The position numbers and the translations under genes were made by a program. Below, in pieces: positions 11,901 to 26,561 of a stretch of DNA of 26,867 bases. Under the pieces are notes generated by a model, which searched no databases, was not told the DNA's origin, and saw nothing but the letters and a program-made list of their open reading frames with translations. The DNA comes from a virus, in IMG/VR virus record IMGVR_UViG_3300024339_000067, positions 1 through 26,867 of that record; one strand, 5' to 3'. How positions within the stretch are numbered: position 1 is the first letter of the stretch; every line of letters begins with the position of its first letter.

Positions 11901-14900
11901 ATAAAGATCAATTGTACTTCGTTAAGTATCATCCTAAAGCCAGAGACTACAAGCCTTGGGTTAAAACGTTGAAAGCAGATATGCTTAAAGCTGGTGTCTT
12001 AAAGGAATACGAAGCTCTAAGGGATATGTATCTTAAGAAGTTCACTAATGCTGATGCAGAGACACATGATAAAGCCTTTGTTAGTACTGTACTCTATGAA
12101 CTAGAGAACAATGGTATGGAATATTCATCAGAGAACGTAAAAGCACTCCTTGGACCGGGATTCATCAAAGATGCTATACAACAGAACAAAAGACAGGCTA
12201 TCTGGTTTACTAATAGTTGGAAAGCTGATAAGAAATATATCAATAGCCTATTAGGACGTGGTGAGGATGATAACTTTAGGTACATTATAACACCTACAAT
12301 GAAGGATAAATTCAATCCAAATGAATTTATAGCTAAAAGTACTGAAAGAGAAGAACATAATGATGGTGGAGCCTTAATCACAGAAAAGCTAGCTAGAGCG
12401 TTGAACCTTGATGGTGGTTTCCCTGAGAGTGGGCAAGTAAAGACCTTTGATGTAGACCCTAATGCAGAACTTGGAGCTCTATTGAACAAGGGTATGTACC
12501 ATATAGTCACTCCTGAAGGTGCCAAAGCTATGGATGCAGCTGGTATTGACATTATATTTACTGATACAGTATCCAAACAAATGGGTAAACGTAAGATTAC
12601 TGAGATGAGTCTTGGTGAGAACAATGAAATGATACTAAAAGGTGGGGAACAATACGAAATAGACCCCGGTAATATCAGATATAACTACAGTGTAAAACAA
12701 GATAGTCACTTCTTTGATGCAGGACAATTCCCTAAACAGGCTACTGTTAGTGTAAATGAAGGGGGTTATGCACCATTTAGTCCTGAGTTAGTAAAAGAGT
12801 TCAAAGAAACAGCCCTACAAAGGACTATGCAAGGCTCTGAAGAGAGTAATGCTGTGCTCGATGAGTACATTGTTAATCCAACTAATAAGAATATATCCAA
12901 AGTAGTCAAGAATATGAGTGATATCTCATTATTAAGGGTTGCAGAGATGTTACTAGCACCGGGACATGAGAATCTGTCTCATCAGTTGTACAGAGAGATG
13001 CTTAAAGTAGAACGTGACACTAATCAGGATGACGTTAATGAGGGTTTGATACGTGAAGAAGATGCTAATACGAGTATAGACGTTATAACAGAGTTTGATA
13101 CAGCCGTTGATAGGATGACATCTGCCTCAATGAGAACAAAAGGGCATAGTCTGTCTGTATTCCTACATAAGCATGTAAATGATTACAGAGAACAAGTCCT
13201 GAGTAACTACTTCGTTAATAGAATTAGCAAACCTAAGTTCATCAATTCAGGTGCCTCTAGGATTAGAAACTATGATATGTGGCTACAAAAGAAGTTCCCT
13301 GAACTAAATACTGATGATAGCTTGTTTATGCTAGGTGAGAGGTATAGAGACATGCCATTTAAACATAGTATAAAAGGTCTCAGAGCAAGGACTCTGGGTG
13401 AGTTCTGGGATAAGTATAACGATCCATCTCTAAAGAAACTAAGACCTGAAATGGAGAAGTACTTGAACGCATTGGTTATACGTGTACCAATTAGTGCTAG
13501 ATCAGCTTTAACTAAACAGATATTTCATGGGTTTACCACTATAAATGATCATGGGGTTGTCTTACACAGTAGAACTATGAGTAGAGTTGATGGTGCTGAC
13601 CTTGATGGTGATAAAATACAGTTCTTCTTTGGTAATGATAAAGAGGGGTTAAAGAACTCTACTATAGATGCTTTTGAAGCTAATAAGAATGAGTTCATGG
13701 TATATCGTAATGATAAAGACTTTGTTATATCACAAGAGGAATACAACTCTAAATCTGATGTAGCTAAGAAAGAGTGGCACCCATTCCTTGAGGGCACTAA
13801 AGACAGACGTATTATGGTTGGACCCAAAAGAGAGAATACTTATCGTGACATACTTACTACTGTACCAGAGAAGGGTACCGAAGATGTGATGACAAGTCCA
13901 ATAACCAAATGGATGCCTCTTATGCGTACACAGATATCAGCTGCTGCTGTGGATGGACGTAATATGCTTGGTCCTGCTGTAGTAAACAAACAGATATTAG
14001 AAGCTACTCATACTACTATGCTTAAGAAGGGTGGTAGAGATACATTTACTATCACACGTAAAACTGGTAGAGATCAAACAACAGAGGGGGACTATAAGTG
14101 GGCTAGATACGCAAAAGATGGTTATGAAGTCTCAAGCCAAGGGGATAAACGATTTAGTGCTTTTCATGCTAAATTAAATAGCGGGGAAACTATTGAAGCG
14201 GCTTATCAACGATTAAAAGGCTCTGGTAAAGGTAAACCATCTATACATAAAAACTTTAATTATTGGGATACATATTTAGGGTTATGGAGGCAATGGGCTA
14301 AAGAAAACCCAACTCTTCTTTCGGAATTAGGGAGAAAGGCAGAAGGAAAAACACTAACAGATAAATTTGCTAATACTAAGAATAATCAGGCTCGTGCTTT
14401 AGCTACAATATTAGGTGGTGCAGTGAAGACAGATGTCCCTGAAATGGAGACCCTTAGTGTCCTTATAGAGCCACGTACAGAGCCTGAATGGCTACAGTAC
14501 CAACGTGAACTAATGGCTGCTCAAATGGCATTTGGTTCTGACCCTATGGATGTATTCGGATTGAAATCAAGAGATGAATGGGCTGATCTTGCATGGGATG
14601 CTTTCTTTAGAGTGAAGACCATAAGAGACTTAGATGGCAATACTAGAGACAAGGTAGTCCTTGGGCCTCATGAAAAGAAACGTGGCTTATATGGTACAGC
14701 TCGTAAGACTAACAATGCTTTGTATGGTCGTAATAATAAAACCAAAAGGAAACATACCGCTATCGAAAGGAATGTACTTCTTGAAGAAGGAGTAAGGAAT
14801 GTTAGTGAAGAAGAGAGTGGCAGTCCTTTGTTTGATATAGGTAGAGCAGTATTCTCTATGGACTTCAGTGATAACATTATAAGAAGGCTTGATTCAAAGA

Positions 14901-17900
14901 AACTGGTTAATAAGACAGCTGAGTATCAGAAAGCACTAGAAGAACTTGATCCTATCAGATTAGGTCTAAATAGAAAGAGCTTAAAGTTCGATGTACCAGA
15001 GCTTACTAAGGTTGCTATTGAGTATAAAATATTCGATAGAGGCGAGATAGTAGCCATAGCTAGTAATGATGTAAAGTTTAAGAAGTTTGTTAAAGAGGCT
15101 TACCCTAAGAATGCAGAGAGTCTCCTTAAAAGACATACTACTAAGGAAGAACGACTTGTACTATTAGATAGAGCACGTAGAGAAGCCAATGACTTCATTA
15201 GTAAGCATATTACTAATATAAACACTACTGTACTACTTAAGAAACTATATGATGCCTCTGAGGACGGTTTATCACGGTTATCTATGATACATGAGTTCGT
15301 AGAAGATATGAAACATAATAGTTACCTCAATAAGATTGAACGAGATCAACTTAAAGGTGCTATAGAAGAAGTACTTGATATGTCTAAAGAATCTTATCCA
15401 GAGTGGACTAAAGCTTCCCTAGAAGGTGAAGCTAAAGAAGAACGATCAAGCATACTGGACCAACAAGAGATAGACCAGAAGATACGTGACTTTAGAAGGA
15501 ATGCTAATCTGACGGATATAGAAAACAAAGCGTTAGACTACCTCATGCTAGGGTCACTTAATAAGGGTGAACTTGAACTAATAGCACGATTAGAGGCCAT
15601 GCCAGAGCAAACCCAAGCTATAAGTGATGCTAAGTATCTTGCTAAGGGTGCTGCTATGAGAACAAGTATGACTAAGCTTGGTTATGATAGTACTGCTATA
15701 CCAGCTAAGAGTGTAGAAGAGTTTATTGGTGGATACAAGGAGTTTGCGAATGATTCATTTACTGATAATCTGTCTGTAAAAAAAGGTGAAGAGGATAAGA
15801 TTGCTAATAAGGTGGCTAATACTACTCCTTCATACATTACACCAGATTCTATTGATAACGATGTAATGATAAAGCATATCACTGGTATGGAAGGCATTGT
15901 TAAGCCTGAAGGTACTGTAGAAATACCTAAGCATATGCAAAGTGCTATGACAGAGCTTATAGATAACGTCAGATATTATGGTGAATCATTTGTTAAAGGG
16001 TTCCCTGATGTAGTAGCTGGTATACTTGGTAAAGAGTATAGAGCTATGAACTTTGAGGATGTTACTATACTTAATGACTACTTCAAAGATATACGAAGAG
16101 GTTCATTCTGGCAGAGGTTCTTTAAAGAGGATACCGCAGAGCTTAAAAAGCGTTATTATAACCTGTTTCCTGAAGCAGTAGATAAAGAGCTATCAAAGTA
16201 TAATATGTTTGTACAGAATGCTAGAGCTGAGATACTTACTAAAGAAGGTACCTTACGTACTGCTAATATAATCAAACCGGGAAACATTATTGTAGCCGTT
16301 CAGGATTGGATTGGTAAGATGCAAGATCAATCAATCAATATGAGTGAGGGTATTATAGCTGACTTAGGAAAAGAGTTCCAGTTCCTATCTTCATTCCCAG
16401 AAGGTGAACCCCTACGTCAGATGGCTATACAACAGATGCATCTAAACTTACGTCAGACTATCTTTGCTAGTGAATCAAAGGATATGAAACAGAAACAGAT
16501 GGAGATAGGTGCACATCAAAAGAGATATGATGATACTTCTTTAAAGTATGGTTATGATAAACTAAAGAATAAACGATTTACTCTTACACTTGAGAATGAA
16601 GAAGGTGAAATGGAACGTGGTGAATATACTGGTGAGTTCGTAGTAGATAGAATTGTTAAAATTTATGCTAAATTCAATGAGAAGATGTATAAGCTACTCA
16701 ATGGTGACGATAAAGGTATTGCTGATTATATATTAACTGCATCTGATCCAGAGACAGGAGATGTACGAGTAGACTGGAATAAATTTATAAAGGATATGAT
16801 GAGTGACTTCTATCTGGGTAAGCCAATCAATACTAATCTGGGAGTCATAGGATTACACAGAATTGGGAAGAGTTCTCTTATTGATCAGGCTACTGATGTA
16901 GAGCTAAAGAAAGAGTTACGTAATATAAAAATACAAAAGGAAGTTGGCAGGTTCCCTGCTAATGGTTATTGGCCTCATTTGATTTTGGAAAAGGGGGAAA
17001 TAACTAAATTAATGAGTCAGAAGATAAAAGAACTGAATGAATCTACTGAGCTTACAGGTAAAGAGAAACGAAAAGAATACCAGAAGCTTGTATATAAGAA
17101 CAAATCCCTTACAGGGGATTGGTCCTTTGATGATATGGATTTCTACTCAAGTGCTGATGCATTAGAAGCTATGAAAGAGGTTGGTGATAAGAAGGTTATA
17201 TCCGATGAAAAGATGAAGTTATTTAATGCTACTGAACGTATAGGTAACATGATGACACGGGAGTATAACTTAGAAGGTTTTTCAACAGATGCTAGTGCTT
17301 ATGAAACCTATGTACGTAATGTTGTTAATGTATACTTTAGACAGATGTCACAGATACTTTCTCGTTATATGGTCAATGACTTTACCAAACGTAATGTACA
17401 CACTATGGGTACTCAACTAACTAATAAATGGTCTAACTTCCTTAAGCTATACATACAGGGTGCTCTTGGTAACGCAGAACACATACCAGAGTACATGCTC
17501 AATGACCCTGATATGAAACTAAAGGGTACCCCTTATAAGGCATGGTCTGATAGTCAGGTCAAGAAGCGAATGAATGGTATACGTCAGAAGCTTGGTATAG
17601 GTGATAAGAATCTGCCTGAAGAATTACAAGGTATAGACTACCATCAGTTACGTCATTGGTCTAATATAGAGGCTCAATACGAGCTTGCTACTTTACTTGC
17701 ACATCCTAAGACAGCAGTAGCTAATGTATTCGGTGGTGTCATGCATACAGTAGAATCTACAGGGCTGTCTAATCTGATGAGAGCTAGAGATATAGAATGG
17801 TTGAGTACACATATCAACCCTAATTGGACAAAAAGAGAAGATATATGGGACTTTGTAGTTGGACATGGAATACTACCAGATTTCATGAAGTATGAGATAG

Positions 17901-18820
17901 GACTACATCCTACACTACGCAAGGAACGTAACAAAGAGTTTATGACTGAATTGATAGATAAGTTCAGCTCTAAGACTCCTGATAAGAAGTCATTATTAGA
18001 ACTACAGAAGAAGTATGGAATATCTGATTATATCGTTAATGTAGCTGCTAAGTTTATGAGTGTTCCTGAGAAACATCTTAGACAGGATGCTTTTATGGCT
18101 CACTATGTACAGGCATGGAAACACTTTGGTGGTGCTATTAAAGACCCTAATCATCCATTCCTTATTGAGATAGCTAAAAAGGGTGTGAAAGCTACGCAGT
18201 TTTTATACTCAGCTCCATTTAGACCGTTGTTTGCAAGGAGTGCTCTGGGTAAGGTGATGACACGTTTTCAGTTGTGGTCATGGAACTCAGTAGCCTTTCG
18301 TAATAACATCAATGCAGAGGCACGTAGATATGGACTTCTTCCGGGATCAGAACAGCATAAAAGGTTTATACGTACAGCTCAGATAGATATGTTTGTATTT
18401 GCCTTGGCTAATGTGTTTGCTTATTCTTTATTTGAACAGACATTACCAGCTCCTTGGAATTGGTTACAGGATACATCAGATTGGGTATTCGGAGATGAGA
18501 AGGAACGTGACAGAGCGTTCTTTGGCTCATGGCCTACAGGGTTAGCCCCATTGCAGATGGTAACACCTCCTGTTGCAAGACTACTTCCGGGAAGTATAAA
18601 GGCACTTATAGATGACGATTGGAGTAAGCTAGCCAAGTATCAAGTATACACTATGCTTCCATTTGGGAGGATTGTGAGAGATTTAGCAGGTCCCGGTAAT
18701 CTGATAGAAAGCCCAATGAGGCTACTTGAGAAGACTACTGGTTTCCCATTAGTACAGCTACAACGTGAGGTATCTCAAGCAAGAAAAGAACGTGAAGAAA
18801 AGAAAGCACTGACCCCCTAA
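8948..18820 (+). CDS. Giant virion polyprotein with double-psi beta-barrel RNA polymerase core (putative virion RNAP)
   Basis: 3290 residues; ATG preceded by GAGGTG. Modules in order: hydrophobic/Ala-Gly N-terminal segments (about 89-122 and 172-215); a SLOG-like nucleotide-binding domain (about 375-570: SGGATGAD, GGTGWGVQMA, FGGIGSRD); a metallopeptidase-like HELSH at 689-693; a region around 1231-1263 (KGGEQYEIDPGNIR ... GQFPKQ) that may be the beta-like barrel; and the beta'-like catalytic barrel with RVPISAR, VVLHSR and DLDGD at 1551-1555. The last matches the NADFDGD metal-binding motif of cellular beta' and the DxDGD of single-chain RNAPs (crAss-like gp66, YonO, QDE-1). Then follow an inserted domain (about 1715-1822), a long helical region, and a C-terminus with a hydrophobic segment (about 3146-3175). 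Known virion RNAPs are injected with DNA and transcribe early genes; that role here is inference. It was not tested whether polymerase activity is intact. Confidence 0.8.
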   Translation: MSPFNAVLPEDQIRSQIEAYKRNPKAFTPRMLSFLQQQADASNVPFDDGAFDISDSIQQAVAGVVEGFTTISIKDQPTNEYEAIIRNVGHLVGFAPGILAGPAKLAGASSKTIAKIAALGEASIPMRGAKFATGKAKSLVTPAVQRALKGRLATSKMATDFLKSGRVAHMAEGAFHLGTASAISSWKGGIEEMAHSLGSGAVFGGAFRAIGNLALTGDKTADVAIRTVAGSMFQGLQSTLQGDTTPTQVYNYLMGAYFGGKETNWKEAATNKFVVDMREKATNDPVFRAKMDPRDIPEFFEKTPELQTMIMKRAHDTWGTRSKVLQRVLYDIVDKLGVEFAAGKSEEQYVPENYKATGEITKEGNKIYRLSEEYVKAFDYFGVSGGATGADTAFNRIGKELNMPVLNYSFEGNAHNARKAGSLVRILTQTELEAADKALGKANATLGRHFNADMDNTFSINLLRRNYSIVKSADTIFAVGTLYKKGKARVASGGTGWGVQMAIDMQKPVRFFDQRANKWLQFDKNLGDFVEMSKPPKLTPRFGGIGSRDLQANGEKAIRDLMEKASTEPKSIKPSKSTTTERNVRDDTAKALRLEIIAENRAAYEKALNPVDHPYKVKKGKSTKIRKGGTDIVPAWVDHDKKIIHLDPEELARKFEDKAWTKPKVKGVKALSENEFNTLDEWVDFVMFHELSHIENRRNPGETQADYENRMNDNALTKMDIKKQLKALDREEAILKLDRTTEDMNNDTPLPENEPGIEYNRNLGKKYIGFVKRFMMPLVEDVPFENKVNKMNEIGDFVYKEVIDKLRVGTTDNRSYEVVDAIKEKYDLVLEQEAAGQLRQWMTSMNTGVNMRMLTVGTTTNYKIKFMNEKNPTTKAGNRKMLREPKRVIEEVWENNGGEGSNLSLLDHVTVKDENGRLKDISVSEYRENGGFLFGRMGYETVIDGNGNEYQRAVNWTPEHYNVKLAEWINQMDKAGYFNYGGRSDKDQLYFVKYHPKARDYKPWVKTLKADMLKAGVLKEYEALRDMYLKKFTNADAETHDKAFVSTVLYELENNGMEYSSENVKALLGPGFIKDAIQQNKRQAIWFTNSWKADKKYINSLLGRGEDDNFRYIITPTMKDKFNPNEFIAKSTEREEHNDGGALITEKLARALNLDGGFPESGQVKTFDVDPNAELGALLNKGMYHIVTPEGAKAMDAAGIDIIFTDTVSKQMGKRKITEMSLGENNEMILKGGEQYEIDPGNIRYNYSVKQDSHFFDAGQFPKQATVSVNEGGYAPFSPELVKEFKETALQRTMQGSEESNAVLDEYIVNPTNKNISKVVKNMSDISLLRVAEMLLAPGHENLSHQLYREMLKVERDTNQDDVNEGLIREEDANTSIDVITEFDTAVDRMTSASMRTKGHSLSVFLHKHVNDYREQVLSNYFVNRISKPKFINSGASRIRNYDMWLQKKFPELNTDDSLFMLGERYRDMPFKHSIKGLRARTLGEFWDKYNDPSLKKLRPEMEKYLNALVIRVPISARSALTKQIFHGFTTINDHGVVLHSRTMSRVDGADLDGDKIQFFFGNDKEGLKNSTIDAFEANKNEFMVYRNDKDFVISQEEYNSKSDVAKKEWHPFLEGTKDRRIMVGPKRENTYRDILTTVPEKGTEDVMTSPITKWMPLMRTQISAAAVDGRNMLGPAVVNKQILEATHTTMLKKGGRDTFTITRKTGRDQTTEGDYKWARYAKDGYEVSSQGDKRFSAFHAKLNSGETIEAAYQRLKGSGKGKPSIHKNFNYWDTYLGLWRQWAKENPTLLSELGRKAEGKTLTDKFANTKNNQARALATILGGAVKTDVPEMETLSVLIEPRTEPEWLQYQRELMAAQMAFGSDPMDVFGLKSRDEWADLAWDAFFRVKTIRDLDGNTRDKVVLGPHEKKRGLYGTARKTNNALYGRNNKTKRKHTAIERNVLLEEGVRNVSEEESGSPLFDIGRAVFSMDFSDNIIRRLDSKKLVNKTAEYQKALEELDPIRLGLNRKSLKFDVPELTKVAIEYKIFDRGEIVAIASNDVKFKKFVKEAYPKNAESLLKRHTTKEERLVLLDRARREANDFISKHITNINTTVLLKKLYDASEDGLSRLSMIHEFVEDMKHNSYLNKIERDQLKGAIEEVLDMSKESYPEWTKASLEGEAKEERSSILDQQEIDQKIRDFRRNANLTDIENKALDYLMLGSLNKGELELIARLEAMPEQTQAISDAKYLAKGAAMRTSMTKLGYDSTAIPAKSVEEFIGGYKEFANDSFTDNLSVKKGEEDKIANKVANTTPSYITPDSIDNDVMIKHITGMEGIVKPEGTVEIPKHMQSAMTELIDNVRYYGESFVKGFPDVVAGILGKEYRAMNFEDVTILNDYFKDIRRGSFWQRFFKEDTAELKKRYYNLFPEAVDKELSKYNMFVQNARAEILTKEGTLRTANIIKPGNIIVAVQDWIGKMQDQSINMSEGIIADLGKEFQFLSSFPEGEPLRQMAIQQMHLNLRQTIFASESKDMKQKQMEIGAHQKRYDDTSLKYGYDKLKNKRFTLTLENEEGEMERGEYTGEFVVDRIVKIYAKFNEKMYKLLNGDDKGIADYILTASDPETGDVRVDWNKFIKDMMSDFYLGKPINTNLGVIGLHRIGKSSLIDQATDVELKKELRNIKIQKEVGRFPANGYWPHLILEKGEITKLMSQKIKELNESTELTGKEKRKEYQKLVYKNKSLTGDWSFDDMDFYSSADALEAMKEVGDKKVISDEKMKLFNATERIGNMMTREYNLEGFSTDASAYETYVRNVVNVYFRQMSQILSRYMVNDFTKRNVHTMGTQLTNKWSNFLKLYIQGALGNAEHIPEYMLNDPDMKLKGTPYKAWSDSQVKKRMNGIRQKLGIGDKNLPEELQGIDYHQLRHWSNIEAQYELATLLAHPKTAVANVFGGVMHTVESTGLSNLMRARDIEWLSTHINPNWTKREDIWDFVVGHGILPDFMKYEIGLHPTLRKERNKEFMTELIDKFSSKTPDKKSLLELQKKYGISDYIVNVAAKFMSVPEKHLRQDAFMAHYVQAWKHFGGAIKDPNHPFLIEIAKKGVKATQFLYSAPFRPLFARSALGKVMTRFQLWSWNSVAFRNNINAEARRYGLLPGSEQHKRFIRTAQIDMFVFALANVFAYSLFEQTLPAPWNWLQDTSDWVFGDEKERDRAFFGSWPTGLAPLQMVTPPVARLLPGSIKALIDDDWSKLAKYQVYTMLPFGRIVRDLAGPGNLIESPMRLLEKTTGFPLVQLQREVSQARKEREEKKALTP

Positions 18821-19140: not shown

Positions 19141-19326
19141 TTATGCACTAGGAGTTATATCGGGAGATGATGGTTCATCTACTCCTAGGAAGTTTGTTAG
19201 TACTTGTGATGCTTTTGATGTGTCTTCTTCTTTAGTTTGAGCACAGTATTTTACTCCTTTACTCATCAACCATAAGATGTCGACATAGTCTTCTGGTGTT
19301 AATTCGATTTTGATTGATTTACTCAT
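19141..19326 (-). CDS. Small hypothetical acidic protein
   Basis: 61 residues from the ATG at 19326, which overlaps the TGA of the upstream gene (ATGA); an in-frame TTG 15 bases earlier is less likely. The sequence starts MSKSIKIELTPEDYVDILWLM, followed by a helical region with one Cys and a Pro/Ser/Asp-rich tail (DEPSSPDITPSA). No domain is recognised. It is the last protein-coding gene of the leftward unit. The overlap with its neighbour supports translation. Confidence 0.6.
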   Translation of the reverse strand: MSKSIKIELTPEDYVDILWLMSKGVKYCAQTKEEDTSKASQVLTNFLGVDEPSSPDITPSA

Positions 19327-19763
19327 TTCAGGAACCCCCAACTTTTAGCTATTTTTATTGGATTAAACATGTCTTTGGTCATTTCTTCAGCCATCTTATC
19401 AAAACACACCTTGCATTGAACTCTTCGTTTATGACCAAAGAATCGAGAACCACAATCAACACAATTATTTAAGTAGTTACCATTTTCATGTGGAAAGTCT
19501 TCTACCCAATTCTTAGGGTCCATCTCAAGAGGTGTTATAGGATCACAATCATCATCAATTAGAGTGTATGTAACTCTATATTTAGCGATATTGTATTTCT
19601 TTTTATCCTTGAATATACCATGACAGTTTGCATGTCTCGCATGAGAAACACTTTCGAAGTCGTATTCATCACAACATGCTCTACTATAACTTCCTGTAGG
19701 TTCACCTGTTTCTTTGTCGATTATGCGAAAAACCACTAAAGGTTTTTTTTCATTTGGTTTCAT
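19323..19763 (-). CDS. Zinc-finger-containing hypothetical protein
   Basis: 146 residues. The N-terminal half (VVFRIIDKETGEPTGSYSRA) begins with a beta-strand region containing an E-T-G turn, then a segment with clustered Cys/His (CCDEYDF, HARHANCHG). The C-terminal part has a zinc-ribbon-like set (NNCVDCGSRFF ... VQCKVC, about 111-131). It is probably a nucleic-acid- or protein-binding early protein; no enzymatic motif is seen. Its start overlaps the TGA of the 46-residue zinc-ribbon gene upstream (ATGA), so the two are likely coupled. Confidence 0.6.
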   Translation of the reverse strand: MKPNEKKPLVVFRIIDKETGEPTGSYSRACCDEYDFESVSHARHANCHGIFKDKKKYNIAKYRVTYTLIDDDCDPITPLEMDPKNWVEDFPHENGNYLNNCVDCGSRFFGHKRRVQCKVCFDKMAEEMTKDMFNPIKIAKSWGFLK

Positions 19764-20632: not shown

Positions 20633-20896
20633 TTATGGTATTATATTATCTTGTATATAATCATCAATACGTTGAAGCATTTTTTTTAGTGCTTTAGGAC
20701 GATGAATAATGTTACTTGACATAGCACTATCTTCTCTCCACCAAATACTGTAAAGTTTCCCATTCTTAAATTTAACAGTTGCTGATACATTTGCGTCTGT
20801 AAACTTTACTTCTGTACTTATAATTGTCGTTTGTTTTGGTTCCTTAAGTTTATCATGAGTATCTTGTAGAACGATATCTTTCTTATTTCCAAACAT
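20633..20896 (-). CDS. Hypothetical protein
   Basis: 87 residues with an AAGGAAG site before the ATG. The first 30 residues are polar; the middle is a beta-hairpin-like stretch (ISTEVKFTDANVSATVKFKNG) followed by KLYSIWW and a C-terminal helix (ALKKMLQRIDDYIQDN). I recognise no family. It lies one to two bases from genes on both sides, directly downstream of the RNA ligase, and may be co-regulated with it. Confidence 0.55.
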   Translation of the reverse strand: MFGNKKDIVLQDTHDKLKEPKQTTIISTEVKFTDANVSATVKFKNGKLYSIWWREDSAMSSNIIHRPKALKKMLQRIDDYIQDNIIP

Positions 20897-20897
20897 G

Positions 20898-21800
20898 TTA
20901 TCTTCCTTTCTCGTTCTTTTCTACTAAAACAGATTTAAGTAACTCTTTGTACATCAAAGCTGTCTTAGCTCCAATTGCTCTGTTAGCTACCTTAGACTTC
21001 ATTATTTCACCTTCTGCTTCTGCCTCTACGTCTGCTATCATAGCTTTGATAACGTTACCAGTGTCTGTTATGTCATAATCTGGGAACTTATCAAGTACAT
21101 GAGTAAGTCGCATTGGTGTAACCCATTCGTCAGCAATAGCTTTAGCTTCTGTTAATAAGACGAAATCTTTCTCATTCACTTCTCGTTTAGTAGAAGTCTC
21201 CATGAAAGCATCGTTCTTATGTTTAGCTTGGATACGAGAACCATTGTTTCTAACAAGAGCTATCACAGGTCTAAGTACAACCCCTTCTCTCATTTTAGGC
21301 TCTTTTATGCCATTCCTAACAGCCTGTACTGATGATTTGTCTCTTTCAGCGTTGATAGCTTCCAGAGTGCATGGTATTTGTGCGTAGTCAACAAACTCTA
21401 TACCAAAGTCTCTACAGAAATGGTCAGCAACTGATGTCATTAAGAACATGTTATTAATTTTCACATCGAATGCTACAAACTTCAGTTCTTTTCCATAGGT
21501 CTCTGACATCCTTTGTTGCTTACCTCCGTAGGCTTCACCATATATAACAGCTGTGTCGAATGTGGTTACACCATCTTCTTTTTTGTGTGGAAATTTGTTA
21601 GAGAAATCAGATTTAAGTTTAACTAAATCGAATAACTTACTAAACCTTAAGTGATCTTCTCCACCACTGAATATCTTTACTTGGTTGCCATCCCATTTAA
21701 TATGTGCAGATGTACCATGTATCTTTTCCATTGCATAACACTCTTTGAATAAGAGTATTGTCTGATCTTTATAAAGGTTATTTATTTTCATGTAACCCAT
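20898..21800 (-). CDS. RNA ligase (Rnl2-like nucleotidyltransferase)
   Basis: 300 residues. The covalent nucleotidyltransferase motifs are in order: motif I EKIHGTSAHI (25-34, with K26 the lysine that takes AMP), YGEAYGG (87-93), motif III FVAFDVK (108-114), motif IV REGVVLRP (171-178) and motif V RIQAKHKN (189-196). The short EK-x-H-G-T form of motif I is typical of RNA ligases (RNA_ligase / T4 Rnl2 type), not DNA ligases. Residues 200-300 are a helical C-terminal extension. The ATG is preceded by GGAGGGATA. It seals nicks or breaks in RNA using ATP. The gene lies immediately downstream of the tRNA cluster, suggesting tRNA repair against anticodon nucleases or tRNA processing. Confidence 0.85.
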   Translation of the reverse strand: MGYMKINNLYKDQTILLFKECYAMEKIHGTSAHIKWDGNQVKIFSGGEDHLRFSKLFDLVKLKSDFSNKFPHKKEDGVTTFDTAVIYGEAYGGKQQRMSETYGKELKFVAFDVKINNMFLMTSVADHFCRDFGIEFVDYAQIPCTLEAINAERDKSSVQAVRNGIKEPKMREGVVLRPVIALVRNNGSRIQAKHKNDAFMETSTKREVNEKDFVLLTEAKAIADEWVTPMRLTHVLDKFPDYDITDTGNVIKAMIADVEAEAEGEIMKSKVANRAIGAKTALMYKELLKSVLVEKNEKGR

Positions 21801-21830
21801 TATCCCTCCTTTTGTTAGTTAATTATTATG

Positions 21831-21903
21831 TAGGCTTGGATGGACTTGAACCACCAACTTTCACCTTATCAGAGTGATGCTCTTCCAATTGAACTACAAG
21901 CCT
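21831..21903 (-). tRNA. tRNA-Ile (anticodon GAU)
   Basis: A 73-nt canonical cloverleaf on the minus strand: acceptor AGGCTTG/CAAGCCT, D-stem GTTC/GAGC, anticodon stem TCACT/GGTGA with loop CTGATAA (anticodon GAU), variable AAGTT, T-arm GGTGG-TTCAAGT-CCATC, discriminator A. CCA is not encoded. It is the last tRNA of the cluster, 31 bases before the RNA ligase start. It would decode AUC/AUU; AUA, frequent in these genes, is not obviously served by this anticodon. Confidence 0.9.
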
Positions 21904-21911
21904 TTAGTGTA

Positions 21912-22021
21912 TAGAGTGGGCAGGATTCGATACCTGCAAGGTGCATTTAAACTTTGGGCGACCTCTTTAAGATTATTTTTAAAGCACCGAGGTCATCACG
22001 TCTATCTTCCGCCACCACTCT
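21912..22021 (-). tRNA. Atypical tRNA-Leu(UAA)-like gene with anticodon-loop insertion
   Basis: 110 nt closed by a perfect acceptor (AGAGTGG/CCACTCT), with a Leu-type D-arm (GCG ... AGA-CGT). Stem GACCT/AGGTC flanks what would be an anticodon arm, but its loop is 25 nt. Removing about 18 nt leaves CTTAAAG with anticodon TAA, fitting a class II tRNA-Leu of normal length. The T-stem GCAGG/CCTGC has an eight-base loop (TATCGAAT) in place of seven, and the D-loop lacks the usual GG. In the insert, GGTGC-TTTAAA is complementary to TTTAAA-T-GCACC in the variable region. It may be a tRNA needing removal of the insert, a decayed tRNA, or a tRNA-like RNA with another role. Confidence 0.5.
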
Positions 22022-22029
22022 AAACTCGT

Positions 22030-22054
22030 GTGAGGGTTACATGCTTACCCTCAC
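22030..22054. other. 8-bp hairpin between tRNAs
   Basis: GTGAGGGT and ACCCTCAC form a perfect 8-bp stem with a nine-base loop, in the 77-base spacer between the UUA-anticodon tRNA and the Leu-like tRNA. It may guide processing of the polycistronic tRNA transcript. No T-run follows on either strand. The rest of the spacer (22055-22098) shows nothing I can name. Confidence 0.4.
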
Positions 22055-22098
22055 TACTTATTTCAGGCAATCCAATTTAGCCTTTGCATGAGCACTTG

Positions 22099-22173
22099 AG
22101 ACAGAGGTTGGACTTGAACCAACGACCTCCCACCCTAAAGGCAGGCGCTCTCTCCAAACTGAGCTACTCTGTC
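22099..22173 (-). tRNA. tRNA with anticodon UUA (predicted UAA/ochre suppressor)
   Basis: A regular 75-nt cloverleaf on the minus strand: acceptor GACAGAG/CTCTGTC, TA, D-stem GCTC/GAGC, anticodon stem CCTGC/GTGGG (two wobble pairs), seven-base loop CTTTAGG, variable AGGTC, T-arm GTTGG-TTCAAGT-CCAAC, discriminator T. Standard numbering puts T34-T35-A36 as anticodon, which pairs with UAA and by wobble UAG. Other registers break the anticodon stem. G37 after A36 is unusual. The charging amino acid cannot be told from sequence; the D-arm/anticodon-stem segment resembles tRNA-Ala. It is first in the cluster, eight bases past the previous gene. Confidence 0.75.
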
Positions 22174-22180
22174 TAGTTTA

Positions 22181-22957
22181 TTAGTACAGATCAGGAAAGT
22201 GACAAATATCGTCATTGAAGCCACAATCAGGACATTTTAATTCACCTATATCTCTTTTCATTTCATGAAACAATATTGTTCCACAATCACCACATGTTAC
22301 TACGTTGATATTAGTCATTCTTTTGATTTTAGCTACTAACTCTTTCTGTGTTTTTTGAGGTGGTTGAGGTCTATTCCAAGGTGTTAGTACTTGAACTATT
22401 ATGTAGTCTGGTCCTAGAAATGCAGGAGGGTCAAGGTTCTCTTTAAACCTGTCCAAACTAATACAATATTTCCCTTTAGCGTCTACAAGTATGTTACCTT
22501 TGACTTCTCTTACTGTTCCATTAGCATACTTGATTATCATGCCATCTCTTAAGTCTGATTTTGTCATTTGAGTTTCCTCTGTTATGTGTTCGATGTCATT
22601 ATAGTATACATAGAAAGTTATAAGCCTAGGATGATTGGTAATGTTATCTTTATACAATCCTTCACAGAAATAGCTTCTTTTTATTACATCACCAATTCTC
22701 TTTATTTCTACTACTAGCCCTATATCAAACCTATGATTATGATTACGTGCTATTATCCTTACTTTGTCACCAACTTTAAACTGTGGTGTTAAAGTCATTT
22801 CATCTTCTATACAACAGAATGTGTCACCTGTATTATCTTGTTGTATATGCCAGTGTTGAAGTTTAATATTATCGTATTTATGTACTATTTTTCCTACTCT
22901 TGAGGCTTGCTTAAGATAACTGAATCTTACGTTATCCCCCACTTTGTATCGTGTCAT
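22181..22957 (-). CDS. SH3/KOW-like repeat protein with C-terminal zinc ribbon
   Basis: 258 residues from the ATG at 22957, which overlaps the upstream TAA (TAATG); an in-frame TTG six bases earlier is less likely. Residues 1-120 contain repeats built on a 'KVGDxVR' beta-strand (YKVGDNVRFSYLK; FKVGDKVRIIARNHNHRFD), a pattern of KOW/SH3-like or hypermobile 'DxV' barrels. A third similar unit occurs around 135-165 (LRDGMIIKYANGTVREVKG). The C-terminus (about 224-247) is a zinc ribbon: CGDCG ... CPDCGF. A nucleic-acid- or RNAP-binding role is plausible, but this is inference from the folds. It lies directly before the tRNA cluster. Confidence 0.6.
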   Translation of the reverse strand: MTRYKVGDNVRFSYLKQASRVGKIVHKYDNIKLQHWHIQQDNTGDTFCCIEDEMTLTPQFKVGDKVRIIARNHNHRFDIGLVVEIKRIGDVIKRSYFCEGLYKDNITNHPRLITFYVYYNDIEHITEETQMTKSDLRDGMIIKYANGTVREVKGNILVDAKGKYCISLDRFKENLDPPAFLGPDYIIVQVLTPWNRPQPPQKTQKELVAKIKRMTNINVVTCGDCGTILFHEMKRDIGELKCPDCGFNDDICHFPDLY

Positions 22958-23169
22958 TACCAATTACCTCTAGAGTTAGTTTTGTTTTTTGGGGCATTTA
23001 GAAATATAGTAAGTCCAACAGATATAATTACTACTGGTATGAAAAACATACCTGCACCATATCCATGTTCATACGTCACTGGTGAATTTACAAATGCGTG
23101 TGCGAATTGAACAAATAGTCCAAAGAATACCATGCTGATTAACATTAATATCGTTCCGATTGTTCTCAT
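22957..23169 (-). CDS. Small two-TM membrane protein
   Basis: 70 residues. Residues 4-25 are hydrophobic (TIGTILMLISMVFFGLFVQF, followed by AHA) and could be a TM helix or a cleavable signal peptide. Residues about 40-58 are a second TM segment (MFFIPVVIISVGLTIFLN), and the tail is basic (PKNKTNSRGNW). No family is recognised. It is part of a run of small early genes coupled by overlaps; host envelope modification or superinfection exclusion are possible roles but unproved. Confidence 0.6.
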   Translation of the reverse strand: MRTIGTILMLISMVFFGLFVQFAHAFVNSPVTYEHGYGAGMFFIPVVIISVGLTIFLNAPKNKTNSRGNW

Positions 23170-23176
23170 AGGTCTC

Positions 23177-23542
23177 CTAACCTGTTATTAAGTTTGATAA
23201 GTATTCTATTAAGAATATCTTTGGTGCTATTAGTATTTTTAACCAATCAATTGCTGATATTACTATAATTAATGGAAATAGTCCAACGAATATACCTAAA
23301 ATTAGTATAATAAGTGGAGCTTCATCGTTATTTTCTTTGATTGCTTGTTTCATTAGTGTCACAATTACTACTATAACAGTAATAAGTAATACTAATCCAA
23401 TGATAAACCATATTAAGTTTACTGCGAATTCCCAAGCAAGTACTTGTTGTAGTACTATTGGTGTTTCTTCTATTACAAAATCTTGTATTGTAGTAAGATT
23501 TGTTAATAAGCTTTCATAAGCTTCAATTAGTTTCTGTTCCAT
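23177..23542 (-). CDS. Small two-TM membrane protein
   Basis: 121 residues. An amphipathic N-terminus (1-37) is followed by TM1 (about 39-64, VNLIWFIIGLVLLITVIVVI), a short charged loop (KQAIKENNDEAP), TM2 (about 76-98) and an amphipathic tail (DWLKILIAPKIF). No motif points to a function. Its start lies 20 bases inside the upstream gene's 3' end, typical of this packed operon. It is not next to lysis genes, so a holin role is not favoured. Confidence 0.6.
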   Translation of the reverse strand: MEQKLIEAYESLLTNLTTIQDFVIEETPIVLQQVLAWEFAVNLIWFIIGLVLLITVIVVIVTLMKQAIKENNDEAPLIILILGIFVGLFPLIIVISAIDWLKILIAPKIFLIEYLSNLITG

Positions 23543-23762
23543 CTTTACCCCTATTTAAGTTGTATTGTTTTATTAGTTTAAGGTTCTTTTCTTTTAGTAT
23601 TTCATGGTCATCATATGTCAGCATTGCTGTACATGTACCACAACGAACATTGTATGTCTCTCCTGCGACCTTTACTTCTTCACCACAGATATAGCAGTAC
23701 ATCCACTTTAATCGCAGTATATTAGTTTGACTAAATCTGATACGTCGCTTCTTGGGTTTCAT
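23523..23762 (-). CDS. Basic zinc-ribbon protein
   Basis: 79 residues. A strongly basic start (MKPKKRRIRFSQ) precedes a four-cysteine zinc ribbon: CYICG (about 23-27) and RCGTC (about 40-44), then a helical Lys-rich tail. This small architecture is common in phage nucleic-acid-binding or transcription-modulating proteins, but no named family is claimed. The ATG overlaps the TGA of the upstream gene (TGATG), so translation is coupled. Confidence 0.6.
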   Translation of the reverse strand: MKPKKRRIRFSQTNILRLKWMYCYICGEEVKVAGETYNVRCGTCTAMLTYDDHEILKEKNLKLIKQYNLNRGKDGTETN

Positions 23763-24010
23763 CAGATATTAGAGTCGAATACTATTGTGCCATTGTATGG
23801 GTAAAAATAGCTCTTTAACCATGTTTTACTATAATATCCTATTCCCCATTGACCATTAGAAACCACGACCCCTTCAAAATGTGTTCCCCTAGGAACATCC
23901 GTAATAAGAATGATAGTTTTATCTTTACTATGCTTTGACCTTACTATTTGGCCTTTTTTTATGTGGTCTTCGGGTTCTTTTATGATCTCGTTTACTGTTA
24001 CACTTAACAT
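23762..24010 (-). CDS. Small beta-barrel-like hypothetical protein
   Basis: 82 residues starting MLSVTVNEII. This start is chosen because AAGGAG lies at the right distance (AAGGAGTACATTATG). The frame is open further upstream (ATG at 24076 and a TTG), but that would translate through the stable hairpin at 24030-24096. The body (KGQIVRSKHSKDKTIILITD, then GVVVSNGQWGIGYYSKTW) looks like an SH3-like barrel similar to sequences in the 22181-22957 gene product. No catalytic motif. Function unknown. Confidence 0.55.
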   Translation of the reverse strand: MLSVTVNEIIKEPEDHIKKGQIVRSKHSKDKTIILITDVPRGTHFEGVVVSNGQWGIGYYSKTWLKSYFYPYNGTIVFDSNI

Positions 24011-24029
24011 AATGTACTCCTTGTAAGTT

Positions 24030-24096
24030 AAGGGTTGAGTGGAGATTATGAAGGACAGCGTAGCTGTGTATGTCATAAAAAGTACACCCAACCCTT
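24030..24096 (-). promoter_or_regulatory. Three-tier hairpin in the 5' leader of a small early gene
   Basis: AAGGGTTGGGTG pairs with CACTCAACCCTT (12 bp). Inside, TTATGA pairs with TCATAA (6 bp), and at the tip ACAGC-TAC-GCTGT forms a 5-bp hairpin. On the minus strand the outer stem has only a G-U wobble; on the plus strand the same position is an A-C mismatch, which supports an RNA made leftward. It sits just upstream of the AAGGAG site of the 23762-24010 gene. It may be a processing, stability or translation-control element. Confidence 0.5.
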
Positions 24097-24104
24097 GTGG
24101 TTAA

Positions 24105-24272
24105 TTATTTGTAATCGTTTCCATCTATACGTACTTCTAATCTGAGACCTACAAAGCCTATTGATAAGGCACATTGAGGGTCTGCTTCTATAGGCCATGC
24201 TATACTGAATTGAAATAACTGAAACAATGTAATTACTACGCCATTGTCTAGTTTCTCAAATTTAAATATCAT
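24105..24272 (-). CDS. 55-residue hypothetical protein
   Basis: A short gene whose ATG overlaps the TGA of the Gp157-like gene (ATGA). It reads MIFKFEKLDNGVVITLFQLF..., a predominantly beta-strand sequence ending in GLRLEVRIDGNDYK. The open frame, the coupled start and the position between two real genes support translation. No known domain is recognised. It is followed by the stable hairpin at 24030-24096. Confidence 0.6.
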   Translation of the reverse strand: MIFKFEKLDNGVVITLFQLFQFSIAWPIEADPQCALSIGFVGLRLEVRIDGNDYK

Positions 24273-24793
24273 GATCTACGCACTTTTTGTAAACGATACA
24301 TCTTGACTCCTTTAGGGAAGTCCTTCTTTTCTGCGTAATTCTTTATACATATCTTTCTTAACATGCTAACATTTGGTTCTTTGGTTGTCTTTGTTCGCCA
24401 GTAGATATCCTCTAATACGTCAGGGTCTACATGGGTTTTACCAAATGTTTCATAAATCTTATATCGTGCCGTCTTCGTTTGTAGAATACCATCTGTTCCG
24501 ATAGTATTTATAGCCATTGGTAACAGGACTTCATCAAAATATGATTTCGTCTTGTTTATAGATTTTAATCTGTTTCTCATACGTTCAACTTCTTTTTTGT
24601 GCACGTCTAACTGTGCTGTCATTACGGCTATTTCTTCGTTTATTGTCATCACAAAGTTGTCCACGTTATCAACCTTTATAGCGAGTCTCTTTCGAGCTAC
24701 ATCTAAATCTGATTGAATCTCTGGATCATCTGGTTCTAACAATAGATCATTTTCTAAATCAATGATTTCGTTTATTTGTTCTTTTGTTGTCAT
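24269..24793 (-). CDS. Gp157-like coiled-coil protein
   Basis: 174 residues. A long helical/coiled-coil N-terminal half (IAVMTAQLDVHKKEVERMRN, continuing to about 90) is followed by a short C-terminal domain with the pattern 'G-x-L-Q-T-K-T-A-R-Y-K-I-Y' (GILQTKTARYKIYETFGK) and a V/I-D-P-D segment. This organisation matches the Sipho_Gp157 family, early phage proteins found beside replication and recombination genes and of unclear biochemical function (linked in one Streptococcus phage to resistance by the host). It sits one base from the primase-helicase gene, consistent with a DNA-replication-related role. Confidence 0.65.
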   Translation of the reverse strand: MTTKEQINEIIDLENDLLLEPDDPEIQSDLDVARKRLAIKVDNVDNFVMTINEEIAVMTAQLDVHKKEVERMRNRLKSINKTKSYFDEVLLPMAINTIGTDGILQTKTARYKIYETFGKTHVDPDVLEDIYWRTKTTKEPNVSMLRKICIKNYAEKKDFPKGVKMYRLQKVRRS

Positions 24794-24794
24794 C

Positions 24795-26561
24795 TTACTC
24801 CTTTATCATTCTAAATGATGGAGTCCATCGGAGCTTTGTCTCAAATAAATCACCATCGGTGTTTTTAAGTAGTTCCATTGTCTTGTGAATACTATCGGCT
24901 CGTCCATTAAGTCCGAGTACCTTACGTGATGCGTTTTCTATAGCACCACTACCTTTACCTGCATATAAGTCTATTACTTGCTCTCTACTGTAGTTTCTGG
25001 ATATCTGTGTTAATTGTATAATGATAATGTCCATTGCTACTGCTATCTTTGATAGCTCATGACTTATATACTTTATCTGTTCGTATTCACCTCTTGCTGT
25101 TTTGGGAGTCTCTACAAGGTCTATATAATCTACTATAACTAGACTTGGATTCAACTCTCTTATCTTGTCTTGTATTTGTGGTATTAAAGGAGCAACAGTC
25201 TGTATATTAATATGACTTACTCTATCTTTGTATTCTTCGAATACTGCTTCGTAGTTATTCTGTATCTGTTCCTTAGAGGTACCACTTACTATCTGTAGGT
25301 TCCTCCTGTGCATGTACCATCCTGAGAGCTCTAAGGATAGGTACAGCGTAGACATAGTCGCATTTTGGTCTATAGTATCAGTACTTGCATTATAGCCTAG
25401 AGCTATGTTCTGAGCTACGGTTGTTTTACTTGCACCAGTAGGTCCAAATATAGTTACTAACTCACCCGGATATATTACTACATCTTTACCAGTCAGACCA
25501 TACAGTTTACTCAGGTCTATAGTTCTACCATCAAAGTTACCTGTAAATCTGGCGACTAATGCTTTCTGTAGTTCATCTGAGTTCATTACGTCTATAGTAT
25601 AATCTTTCCTTTTAAAATACATGCAACTTGTCTGACAATGTGCAGTCATAAGCTTATCTATACAACTGTATTGATAGCCACCATTGTACACACTTTCTAC
25701 TTGTTTTAGTATTTCTTCTTCTTCTAAGTTGTTGTTATTCCAGTGTAATAGAGCAACTTTACAATAATCTGATGGGATACCATGTCTCCTGAAATGACTC
25801 GCAACACGTAGTAATACATTGTGCCTTGTCCCTTCTTTGGGTCCACGATTTAACATAGCTTGTATGCATGGTACTATTTTATATGGTTCTACAACTTTCT
25901 TAGATATCTCTCTTATTTGTGGTACTTCAAAGTCTACCAGATGTTTAAGTTCTCCATTGCCATCTAAAGCAAAAGCCCAATTATTCTTCTCTGTTATTGT
26001 TTTAGCAGATTCAAATATATCTTTAACTTGCCCATAAAGAAATGTAGACATCTCTAAAGGTATCTTATGAAGTCCTGTTTTCTGGTTGATTGTGTATTGT
26101 ACCCTGTAGATACCACTTCGCATAAGTATACTAATATCAGCACTTGGGAATGCCTTCTTAATACTATTCTTTACTTGAAATGGTAAATCCTTTGATCCTT
26201 TGAAGCCAAAGAGCTTGTTACTTAATTGTATGTGATAACCAGTACCACTAAAATATACTCCAATATCATTCTTGTCTACGTCACTATCCAGTAGTTCCAT
26301 AACTATGGCACGAGCTTTATTCAATGTGAGTATATCAGTATTCTTCTCTTTGTCTATATCTAGTATTATATGATCTATGTATCTCATGCCAAAGTAACCT
26401 TTAACAGATTTATTCTTTAACATCCAATCCCTACCTTCTTCATCATATAGATAGGTACTTCTATATAAAGGTACTAATGGATTCAACTTTTCGATCATCT
26501 CTGGTTTAGTGAGAGGGACCCCTCGGTTAAAAGGAGTCCCTTCTGCAACTTCTAGGTACAT
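24795..26561 (-). CDS. AEP primase-helicase fusion (PrimPol + RecA/DnaB-like ATPase)
   Basis: 588 residues from the ATG at 26561 (one-base overlap with the upstream TGA; a TTG at 26564 is also in frame). The N-terminal archaeo-eukaryotic primase (AEP) domain shows motif I IILDIDKE (D68, D70), motif II SGTGYH (105-110) and a motif III candidate IPLEMS (about 167-172). Residues 245-318 are a helical PriCT-like region ending in a Cys cluster (C300, C309, C313: YSCIDKLMTAHCQTSC). The C-terminal RecA/DnaB-like helicase has Walker A GPTGASKTT (373-381) and Walker B LVIVDY (D478), with a later glutamine-rich IIIIQLTQISR sensor region. It should synthesise primers and unwind DNA at the fork in one chain. 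No TOPRIM/DnaG domain is present. Confidence 0.85.
   Translation of the reverse strand: MYLEVAEGTPFNRGVPLTKPEMIEKLNPLVPLYRSTYLYDEEGRDWMLKNKSVKGYFGMRYIDHIILDIDKEKNTDILTLNKARAIVMELLDSDVDKNDIGVYFSGTGYHIQLSNKLFGFKGSKDLPFQVKNSIKKAFPSADISILMRSGIYRVQYTINQKTGLHKIPLEMSTFLYGQVKDIFESAKTITEKNNWAFALDGNGELKHLVDFEVPQIREISKKVVEPYKIVPCIQAMLNRGPKEGTRHNVLLRVASHFRRHGIPSDYCKVALLHWNNNNLEEEEILKQVESVYNGGYQYSCIDKLMTAHCQTSCMYFKRKDYTIDVMNSDELQKALVARFTGNFDGRTIDLSKLYGLTGKDVVIYPGELVTIFGPTGASKTTVAQNIALGYNASTDTIDQNATMSTLYLSLELSGWYMHRRNLQIVSGTSKEQIQNNYEAVFEEYKDRVSHINIQTVAPLIPQIQDKIRELNPSLVIVDYIDLVETPKTARGEYEQIKYISHELSKIAVAMDIIIIQLTQISRNYSREQVIDLYAGKGSGAIENASRKVLGLNGRADSIHKTMELLKNTDGDLFETKLRWTPSFRMIKE

What the first reader, a model, noticed from the sequence alone, without database searches (positions are those of the whole stretch)
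22099..22173. Predicted ochre-suppressor tRNA (anticodon UUA) in a genome that mostly stops at UAA
The cloverleaf is clean and the anticodon register is fixed by stem pairing. By my count 17 of 28 gene ends here are TAA, 4 TAG and 7 TGA, and the long late genes lack in-frame stops, so the code is not globally reassigned. Recoding phages usually carry UAG or UGA suppressors; a UAA reader is rare. It could allow partial readthrough late in infection, be unused, or have a non-decoding role.
Basis: partly seen in the sequence, partly recalled or inferred. Interest (0 to 1): 0.75.

Follow-up and report, generated by a model that had tools for sequence, protein, structure and literature searches.

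The report
Stop-reading phage tRNA, probably not decoding
A virus of bacteria carries a transfer RNA gene whose code letters match a stop signal, but its genome shows no sign of reading that stop as an amino acid and a near-identical virus carries a different stop-matching version, so the gene more likely has another role or is decaying.

Summary
The tRNA is real: ARAGORN and Rfam place it at 22098/22099-22173 on the minus strand, anticodon UUA, 57 bits against a cut-off of 29. The code is standard: 16 of 26 tabulated genes end in TAA, and no stop lies inside the five genes that relatives share. Recoding is not supported. The tRNA also looks a poor decoder: its loop, CTTTAGG, has G37, G38 and a possible C32-G38 pair, whereas 92 of 95 phage amber tRNAs have A37 and none has C32-G38. 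The key new fact is allelic. A contig 99.65% identical over 5,193 bases carries anticodon UCA at the same place, and 12 of the 18 differences fall in 83 bases over the tRNA. The T stem keeps pairing through two double changes, while the anticodon stem gains a G-G mismatch. None of 27 differences between a UUA and a UCA contig touches a stop codon. The tRNA sits in an insert with a tRNA-like RNA, tRNA-Ile and an RNA ligase; relatives lack it. Best reading: an accessory, probably non-decoding tRNA in an RNA cassette. Its role is inferred.

The parts
22099..22173 (-). class I tRNA gene, anticodon UUA (22138-22136), loop CTTTAGG; no CCA encoded
   Evidence: ARAGORN, Rfam 57 bits
22108..22190 (.). 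tract holding 12 of the 18 differences between the window and L004, in which the tRNA becomes UCA
21913..22021 (-). 109-nt tRNA-like RNA: acceptor stem and T arm (8-nt T loop), long irregular middle; no ARAGORN call and no Rfam match at the cut-off
21830..21903 (-). tRNA-Ile, anticodon GAU
   Evidence: 64.9 bits
20898..21800 (-). RNA ligase gene (300 aa)
   Evidence: Pfam PF09414 E 1.7e-12 and PHROG 548 E 2.7e-28
20633..24091 (-). accessory insert between ORF 24269-24793 and the HNH gene: six small ORFs, two tRNAs, tRNA-like RNA, RNA ligase
   Evidence: its ORFs have no match in 75 of 75 relatives; the flanking primase and HNH genes are 321-1205 nt apart in 68 of 68 relatives that hold both

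Best explanation
Shown: a folded class I tRNA gene with a formal UUA anticodon lies in a phage that uses the standard code. A near-identical genome carries a UCA version at the same place. The whole cassette (stop-anticodon tRNA, tRNA-like RNA, tRNA-Ile, RNA ligase and small ORFs) is an insert that comparable relatives lack. Inferred: the tRNA is not used to recode or to extend proteins, and its anticodon arm is a poor or non-decoding one; it probably derives from a sense tRNA (phage tRNA-Arg(UCU) is the nearest body compared). Inferred with less support: the cassette counters host defences that cut tRNAs. In that reading the ligase repairs cut RNA, tRNA-Ile restocks a decoding tRNA, and the stop-anticodon tRNA is tolerated or serves as bait, since mainly its acceptor/T-arm half is kept intact.
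For: No internal or read-through stop in the five genes shared with relatives, 270 sense alignments. TAA is 16 of 25 gene ends here and 698 of 1161 in relatives without the tRNA. G37, G38 and C32-G38 in both alleles, against A37 in 92, G38 in 1 and C32-G38 in 0 of 95 phage amber tRNAs. UUA/UCA exchange without any change at a stop codon, 0 of 27 differences. T-stem double changes that keep pairs, anticodon stem G-U to G-G. Insert with RNA ligase and tRNA-Ile.
Against: Both known alleles read a stop codon; by simple counting 2 of the 9 single-base neighbours of UUA do so, so chance would give this about one time in five. 32 of 202 control loops also fold shut in silico, and 47 of 95 amber tRNAs have a stem mismatch. 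The closest ligase relative, LR745208.1, has no ARAGORN tRNA within 6 kb. There are no expression data and the host is unknown; only two alleles are known.
Confidence: 0.5

Rival explanations
1. Neutral relic: a former sense tRNA, perhaps tRNA-Arg(UCU), whose anticodon arm has drifted to a stop triplet and which is carried along in an accessory insert without function.
For: Nearest of 203 compared tRNAs is phage tRNA-Arg(UCU), 57 bases alike of 75. Atypical loop, G-G mismatch in the sister allele, absence from relatives.
Against: The T stem stays paired through two double changes and the acceptor and D arms are identical in both alleles; the fold scores 57 bits. These could predate the loss of function.
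Confidence: 0.27
2. Weak or conditional stop reading: UUA (or UCA in the sister phage) lets some ribosomes pass terminators of phage or host genes late in infection, for example to disturb the host.
For: Both alleles read a stop codon. Three gene pairs here are in frame across TAA or TAG with short spacers. A host-disturbing role has been proposed for unused phage suppressor tRNAs (PMC12386605, passages).
Against: No conserved read-through; TAA is not avoided; loop unlike phage amber suppressors; stop codons do not follow the allele. The in-frame pairs each have their own ATG.
Confidence: 0.18
3. Artefact: assembly error or later RNA editing, so that the mature tRNA reads a sense codon.
For: The tract differs sharply from its flanks, as a chimeric assembly could.
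Against: The UUA sequence is the same in two contigs that differ at 22 of 7,726 positions elsewhere, and the UCA allele keeps paired T and acceptor stems. No editing that would act here is known to me (recalled, not tested).
Confidence: 0.05

Closest known systems
Phage amber (CUA) and opal (UCA) suppressor tRNAs of recoded phages (codes 15 and 4)
   Same: Phage tRNA gene with a stop anticodon and a tRNA fold
   Different: UUA, no recoded genes, G37/G38 loop; phage amber tRNAs nearly always have A37 (92 of 95)
Stop-anticodon phage tRNAs without recoding: XacN1 CUA tRNAs (PMC5852040) and zeta crAss-like clade 8 (PMC12386605)
   Same: Stop anticodon, no read-through targets found, function unknown
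   Different: UUA instead of CUA; a UUA/UCA exchange within one species; RNA ligase in the same insert
Phage tRNAs proposed to evade anticodon nucleases by loop mutations (PMC10264068), and phage tRNA repair by RNA ligase (T4, recalled)
   Same: tRNA genes next to an RNA ligase gene; altered anticodon loop
   Different: Stop anticodon; host and nuclease unknown; I did not search for a partner end-healing enzyme

Membership tests
tRNA (Rfam RF00005) | covariance model score above the curated cut-off | tested here: met
   57 bits against 29
Recoding suppressor tRNA of phages | stop anticodon | tested here: met
   UUA
Recoding suppressor tRNA of phages | the matching stop codon lies inside conserved genes | tested here: not met
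   no internal stop in the five genes with relatives, 270 sense alignments
Recoding suppressor tRNA of phages | the matching stop codon is avoided as a terminator | tested here: not met
   TAA ends 16 of 26 genes; 60% in relatives without the tRNA
Recoding suppressor tRNA of phages | anticodon loop with A37 and open 32-38 (usual in 95 phage amber tRNAs) | tested here: not met
   G37, G38, C32-G38 against 3, 1 and 0 of 95
Recoding suppressor tRNA of phages | expressed, charged and active on stop codons | not testable with these tools
   needs RNA, charging or reporter data
Selenocysteine tRNA (ARAGORN label of the UCA allele) | 8-bp acceptor stem and long variable arm | tested here: not met
   7-bp acceptor and 5-nt variable loop
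Counter-defence tRNA and RNA-repair set | RNA ligase encoded with the tRNAs | tested here: met
   PF09414 and PHROG 548, gene 98 nt downstream of the tRNA-like RNA and tRNA-Ile block; only by annotation
Counter-defence tRNA and RNA-repair set | loop changed at a site cut by a nuclease of the host, with a protective effect | not testable with these tools
   host and nuclease unknown

The most novel reading that the evidence does not exclude
The stop-anticodon tRNA is a non-decoding bait in an accessory RNA-repair cassette. Selection keeps only its acceptor/T-arm half, its anticodon arm is exchanged between alleles in the population, and it works with the tRNA-like RNA and the RNA ligase against host defences that cut tRNAs. 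Phage 'suppressor' tRNAs without recoding would then be baits rather than code changers.
Probability: 0.15. Interest if true: 0.75.

Novelty: new variant of a known kind. Interest (0 to 1): 0.42.

Why it matters
Why some phages carry stop-anticodon tRNAs without recoding is an open question stated in print (PMC12386605, passages). Here one phage species offers a natural experiment: UUA and UCA alleles on almost the same genome with unchanged stop codons. That speaks against recoding and makes other roles directly testable.

Tried and rejected
Shifted register (UAG or CAG, Leu-like): rejected, because the anticodon arm is 17 nt with both stem sides fixed and a shift breaks the stem (read from the sequence).

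Global UAA reassignment: rejected. In one search, reading TAA as sense raised ORF coverage from 0.95 to 0.97 in the window and from 0.85 to 0.93 in L006, as removing any frequent stop may do; I ran no chance control for that.

Six in-frame stops flagged (at 24803-24808, in three alignments of 30-37% identity) lie upstream of the start codon of ORF 24269-24793 and were not counted as internal. One search, the unfiltered version of this test, was mostly antisense noise.

Xanthomonas phage X1 'tRNA-OTHER', whose loop also holds TTTAGG: considered as a relative, but its loop has another length, and a pattern covering both forms found only this species in IMG/VR. I treat the likeness as chance.

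A theta ribozyme beside the tRNA: no Rfam hit suggested one; not tested with a dedicated model.

More alleles: the scans found only the same two contigs (only one of them). In bacterial genomes the same acceptor, D and T arms occurred once, in a tRNA-Met of a Magasanikbacteria MAG, which I do not take as a source. RNA ligase against PDB sequences: no match at 1e-3. T4-like stable RNAs as a match for the middle element: looked for in L105 and not established.

Full report
OBSERVATION. ARAGORN finds two tRNAs in the window, Ile(GAU) at 21830-21903 and Stop(UUA) at 22098-22173, both on the minus strand. Rfam RF00005 agrees, with 64.9 and 57 bits against a cut-off of 29. The second has acceptor GACAGAG/CTCTGTC, D arm GCTC/GAGC, anticodon stem CCTGC/GTGGG (two G-U pairs), loop CTTTAGG, variable loop AGGTC and T arm GTTGG/CCAAC. 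The 17-nt anticodon arm fixes the register as UUA. The strand folds better than 197 of 200 shuffles. The window is a virus record of 26,867 bases classed as linear; its host is unknown.

CODE. Of 26 ORFs tabulated, 16 end in TAA, 4 in TAG and 6 in TGA. A mechanical count gives 16/4/5 of 25 here, and 698/240/223 of 1161 ORFs in 75 distant relatives without this tRNA, whose mean GC is 0.339 against 0.376 here. Proteins of those relatives gave 360 alignments to the window, 270 in the sense frame of five genes (from 42, 68, 21, 75 and 23 relatives). No stop lay inside a gene, and no alignment ran more than 45 nt past a gene end (six flagged codons upstream of one start are told under Tried and rejected). 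Only these five genes could be tested this way; the others have no match in the set. Three gene pairs are in frame across TAA or TAG with short spacers, each second gene with its own ATG.

ALLELES. Contig 3300037805_000236 (L003/L006) has the same UUA tRNA. Contig 3300024258_000165 (L004/L009) has UCA, labelled SeC by ARAGORN. The window and L004 differ at 18 of 5193 positions, 12 of them in 22108-22190. The chance of 12 or more in one given 83-base tract is about 2e-18, and about 1e-14 over all tracts; the tract was chosen after seeing the data. In tRNA numbering the changes are: anticodon base 35 U to C; pair 30-40 from G-U to G-G; pair 50-64 from U-A to C-G; pair 51-63 from U-A to A-U; pair 52-62 from G-C to G-U; two T-loop bases; and three bases in and just after the end of the upstream ORF. 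So the T stem has been kept by double changes while the anticodon stem has not. L006 and L009 differ at 27 of 14,890 positions, none in a stop codon. Exchange with a diverged relative is the simplest origin; a second cluster, 16 of 22 differences between the window and L003 at 19155-19444, suggests that mosaicism is usual here. The donor was not found.

LOOP. Two controls. First, 202 tRNAs with a full anticodon from 13 stretches of tRNA-bearing phages, fetched because they matched by BLAST and so not a random sample: none has a stop anticodon; of 43 with A36, 37 have A37, 5 G37 and 1 C37; 7 of 202 have G38; 1 has C32-G38. Second, phage amber tRNAs: a class I CUA pattern hit 82 viral contigs, of which 80 became loci; 77 of the 80 hold ARAGORN CUA tRNAs, 95 in all: A37 in 92, G37 in 3, G38 in 1, C32-G38 in 0. 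The window's tRNA has G37, G38 and C32-G38, and so has the UCA allele. Against over-reading this: 32 of 202 control loops also fold shut in silico, and 47 of 95 amber tRNAs have at least one stem mismatch. The nearest of 203 compared tRNAs is cyanophage tRNA-Arg(UCU), 57 bases alike of 75; for the UCA allele tRNA-Arg(UCU) and tRNA-Ala(UGC) are about equal.

RARITY. The UUA version of the pattern hit 13 contigs, one of them this species. Of the other 12, ARAGORN calls UUA in five, a two-base undetermined anticodon in six, and no tRNA in one. The pattern covers only class I tRNAs with GCTCAG...GAGC arms and a GGTTCRA T arm. In the held stretches of two of the five, L109 and L116, TAA is also the commonest gene end, 17 of 23 and 9 of 13. 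So this is rare but not unique.

SURROUNDINGS. Order on the minus strand: small ORFs, UUA tRNA, a 109-nt tRNA-like RNA (21913-22021), tRNA-Ile, RNA ligase (Pfam E 1.7e-12, PHROG E 2.7e-28), a small ORF, HNH nuclease. In 68 of 75 relatives both the primase-helicase and HNH genes are held, 321-1205 nt apart; here the distance is 4165 nt. The ligase and the six small ORFs of the insert have no match in any of the 75, and ARAGORN finds no tRNA in them. The cassette is therefore an accessory insert. The best ligase match among phages, LR745208.1 (48% identity), has no ARAGORN tRNA within 6 kb, which weakens a fixed partnership. A consensus scan found no promoter excess and no terminator-like site.

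MECHANISM. Shown: gene, anticodon, two alleles, standard code, insert. Inferred: poor decoding, from the loop and because stop codons do not follow the allele. Inferred with less support: a role against tRNA-cutting defences, from the neighbouring ligase and from the published proposal that phage tRNAs evade anticodon nucleases by loop mutations (PMC10264068, passages). Cas13a cuts uridine-rich anticodons (PMC11042736, passages), one way in which such a loop could be bait; for this phage that is speculation. A neutral relic is the main rival, weak stop reading the second.

KNOWN AND NEW. Stop-anticodon phage tRNAs without recoding are known: XacN1 has CUA tRNAs with no identified targets (PMC5852040, passages); zeta crAss-like clade 8 has CUA without suppression, and the authors ask why (PMC12386605, passages). 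Of suppressor tRNAs associated with theta ribozymes, 99.7% are amber (PMC10879173, passages). Other phage surveys speak of CTA and TCA (PMC11210395; for CTA PMC13037316; passages). A Sup-TTA tRNA is listed in a Lactobacillus plantarum genome (PMC5637513, passage). My searches showed me no paper on a phage UUA tRNA, but the library holds open papers only and I saw listings and passages, not whole texts. I file it as a new variant of a known kind: UUA, an atypical loop, and a UUA/UCA exchange on one genome backbone.

Noticed in passing
window 21913-22021 (-); L087 1152-1227; L089 495-625; L096 2309-2398; L099 6594-6668; L105 5315-5405: tRNA-like elements with a paired acceptor stem and T arm but an irregular middle, not called by ARAGORN, occur beside tRNA genes in several phages. 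A scan of 20 loci gave 12; 75 relatives without tRNAs (960 kb) gave none, and an acceptor-swap control matched 3.5% of T arms. Some may be ordinary tRNAs that ARAGORN missed.
   Followed up: partly
window 21913-22021 (-) and phAPEC8 JX561091.1 60069-60089 (L087): The T arm with an 8-nt loop (GCAGGTATCGAATCCTGC) is shared exactly over 21 nt with an unannotated tRNA-like element in a phAPEC8 tRNA array, and in many related records.
   Followed up: partly
window 8948-18820 (+): A 3290-aa ORF carries a DprA-like stretch (residues 373-520, PHROG 768), also matched in N4-like virion RNA polymerase records, and a PHROG 9995 stretch (1716-1822) with an ADLDGD motif; it may be a virion RNA polymerase or related internal protein (motif reading is mine).
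   Followed up: no
window 19155-19444: A second cluster of differences between near-identical contigs: 16 of 22 between the window and L003.
   Followed up: no
L006 4268-4270: Three adjacent base changes turn Cys into Asn between the UUA and UCA contigs.
   Followed up: no
window 2837/2844, 6730/6740, 7872/7882: Three late-gene pairs lie in the same frame, parted only by TAG, TAA and TAA and a few codons. Chance spacing explains this, but they would be the places to look for read-through products.
   Followed up: partly
L110, L111, L114, L115, L117, L118: Six viral contigs carry tRNAs with TTTA in a loop that ARAGORN reads as a two-base, undetermined anticodon.
   Followed up: no
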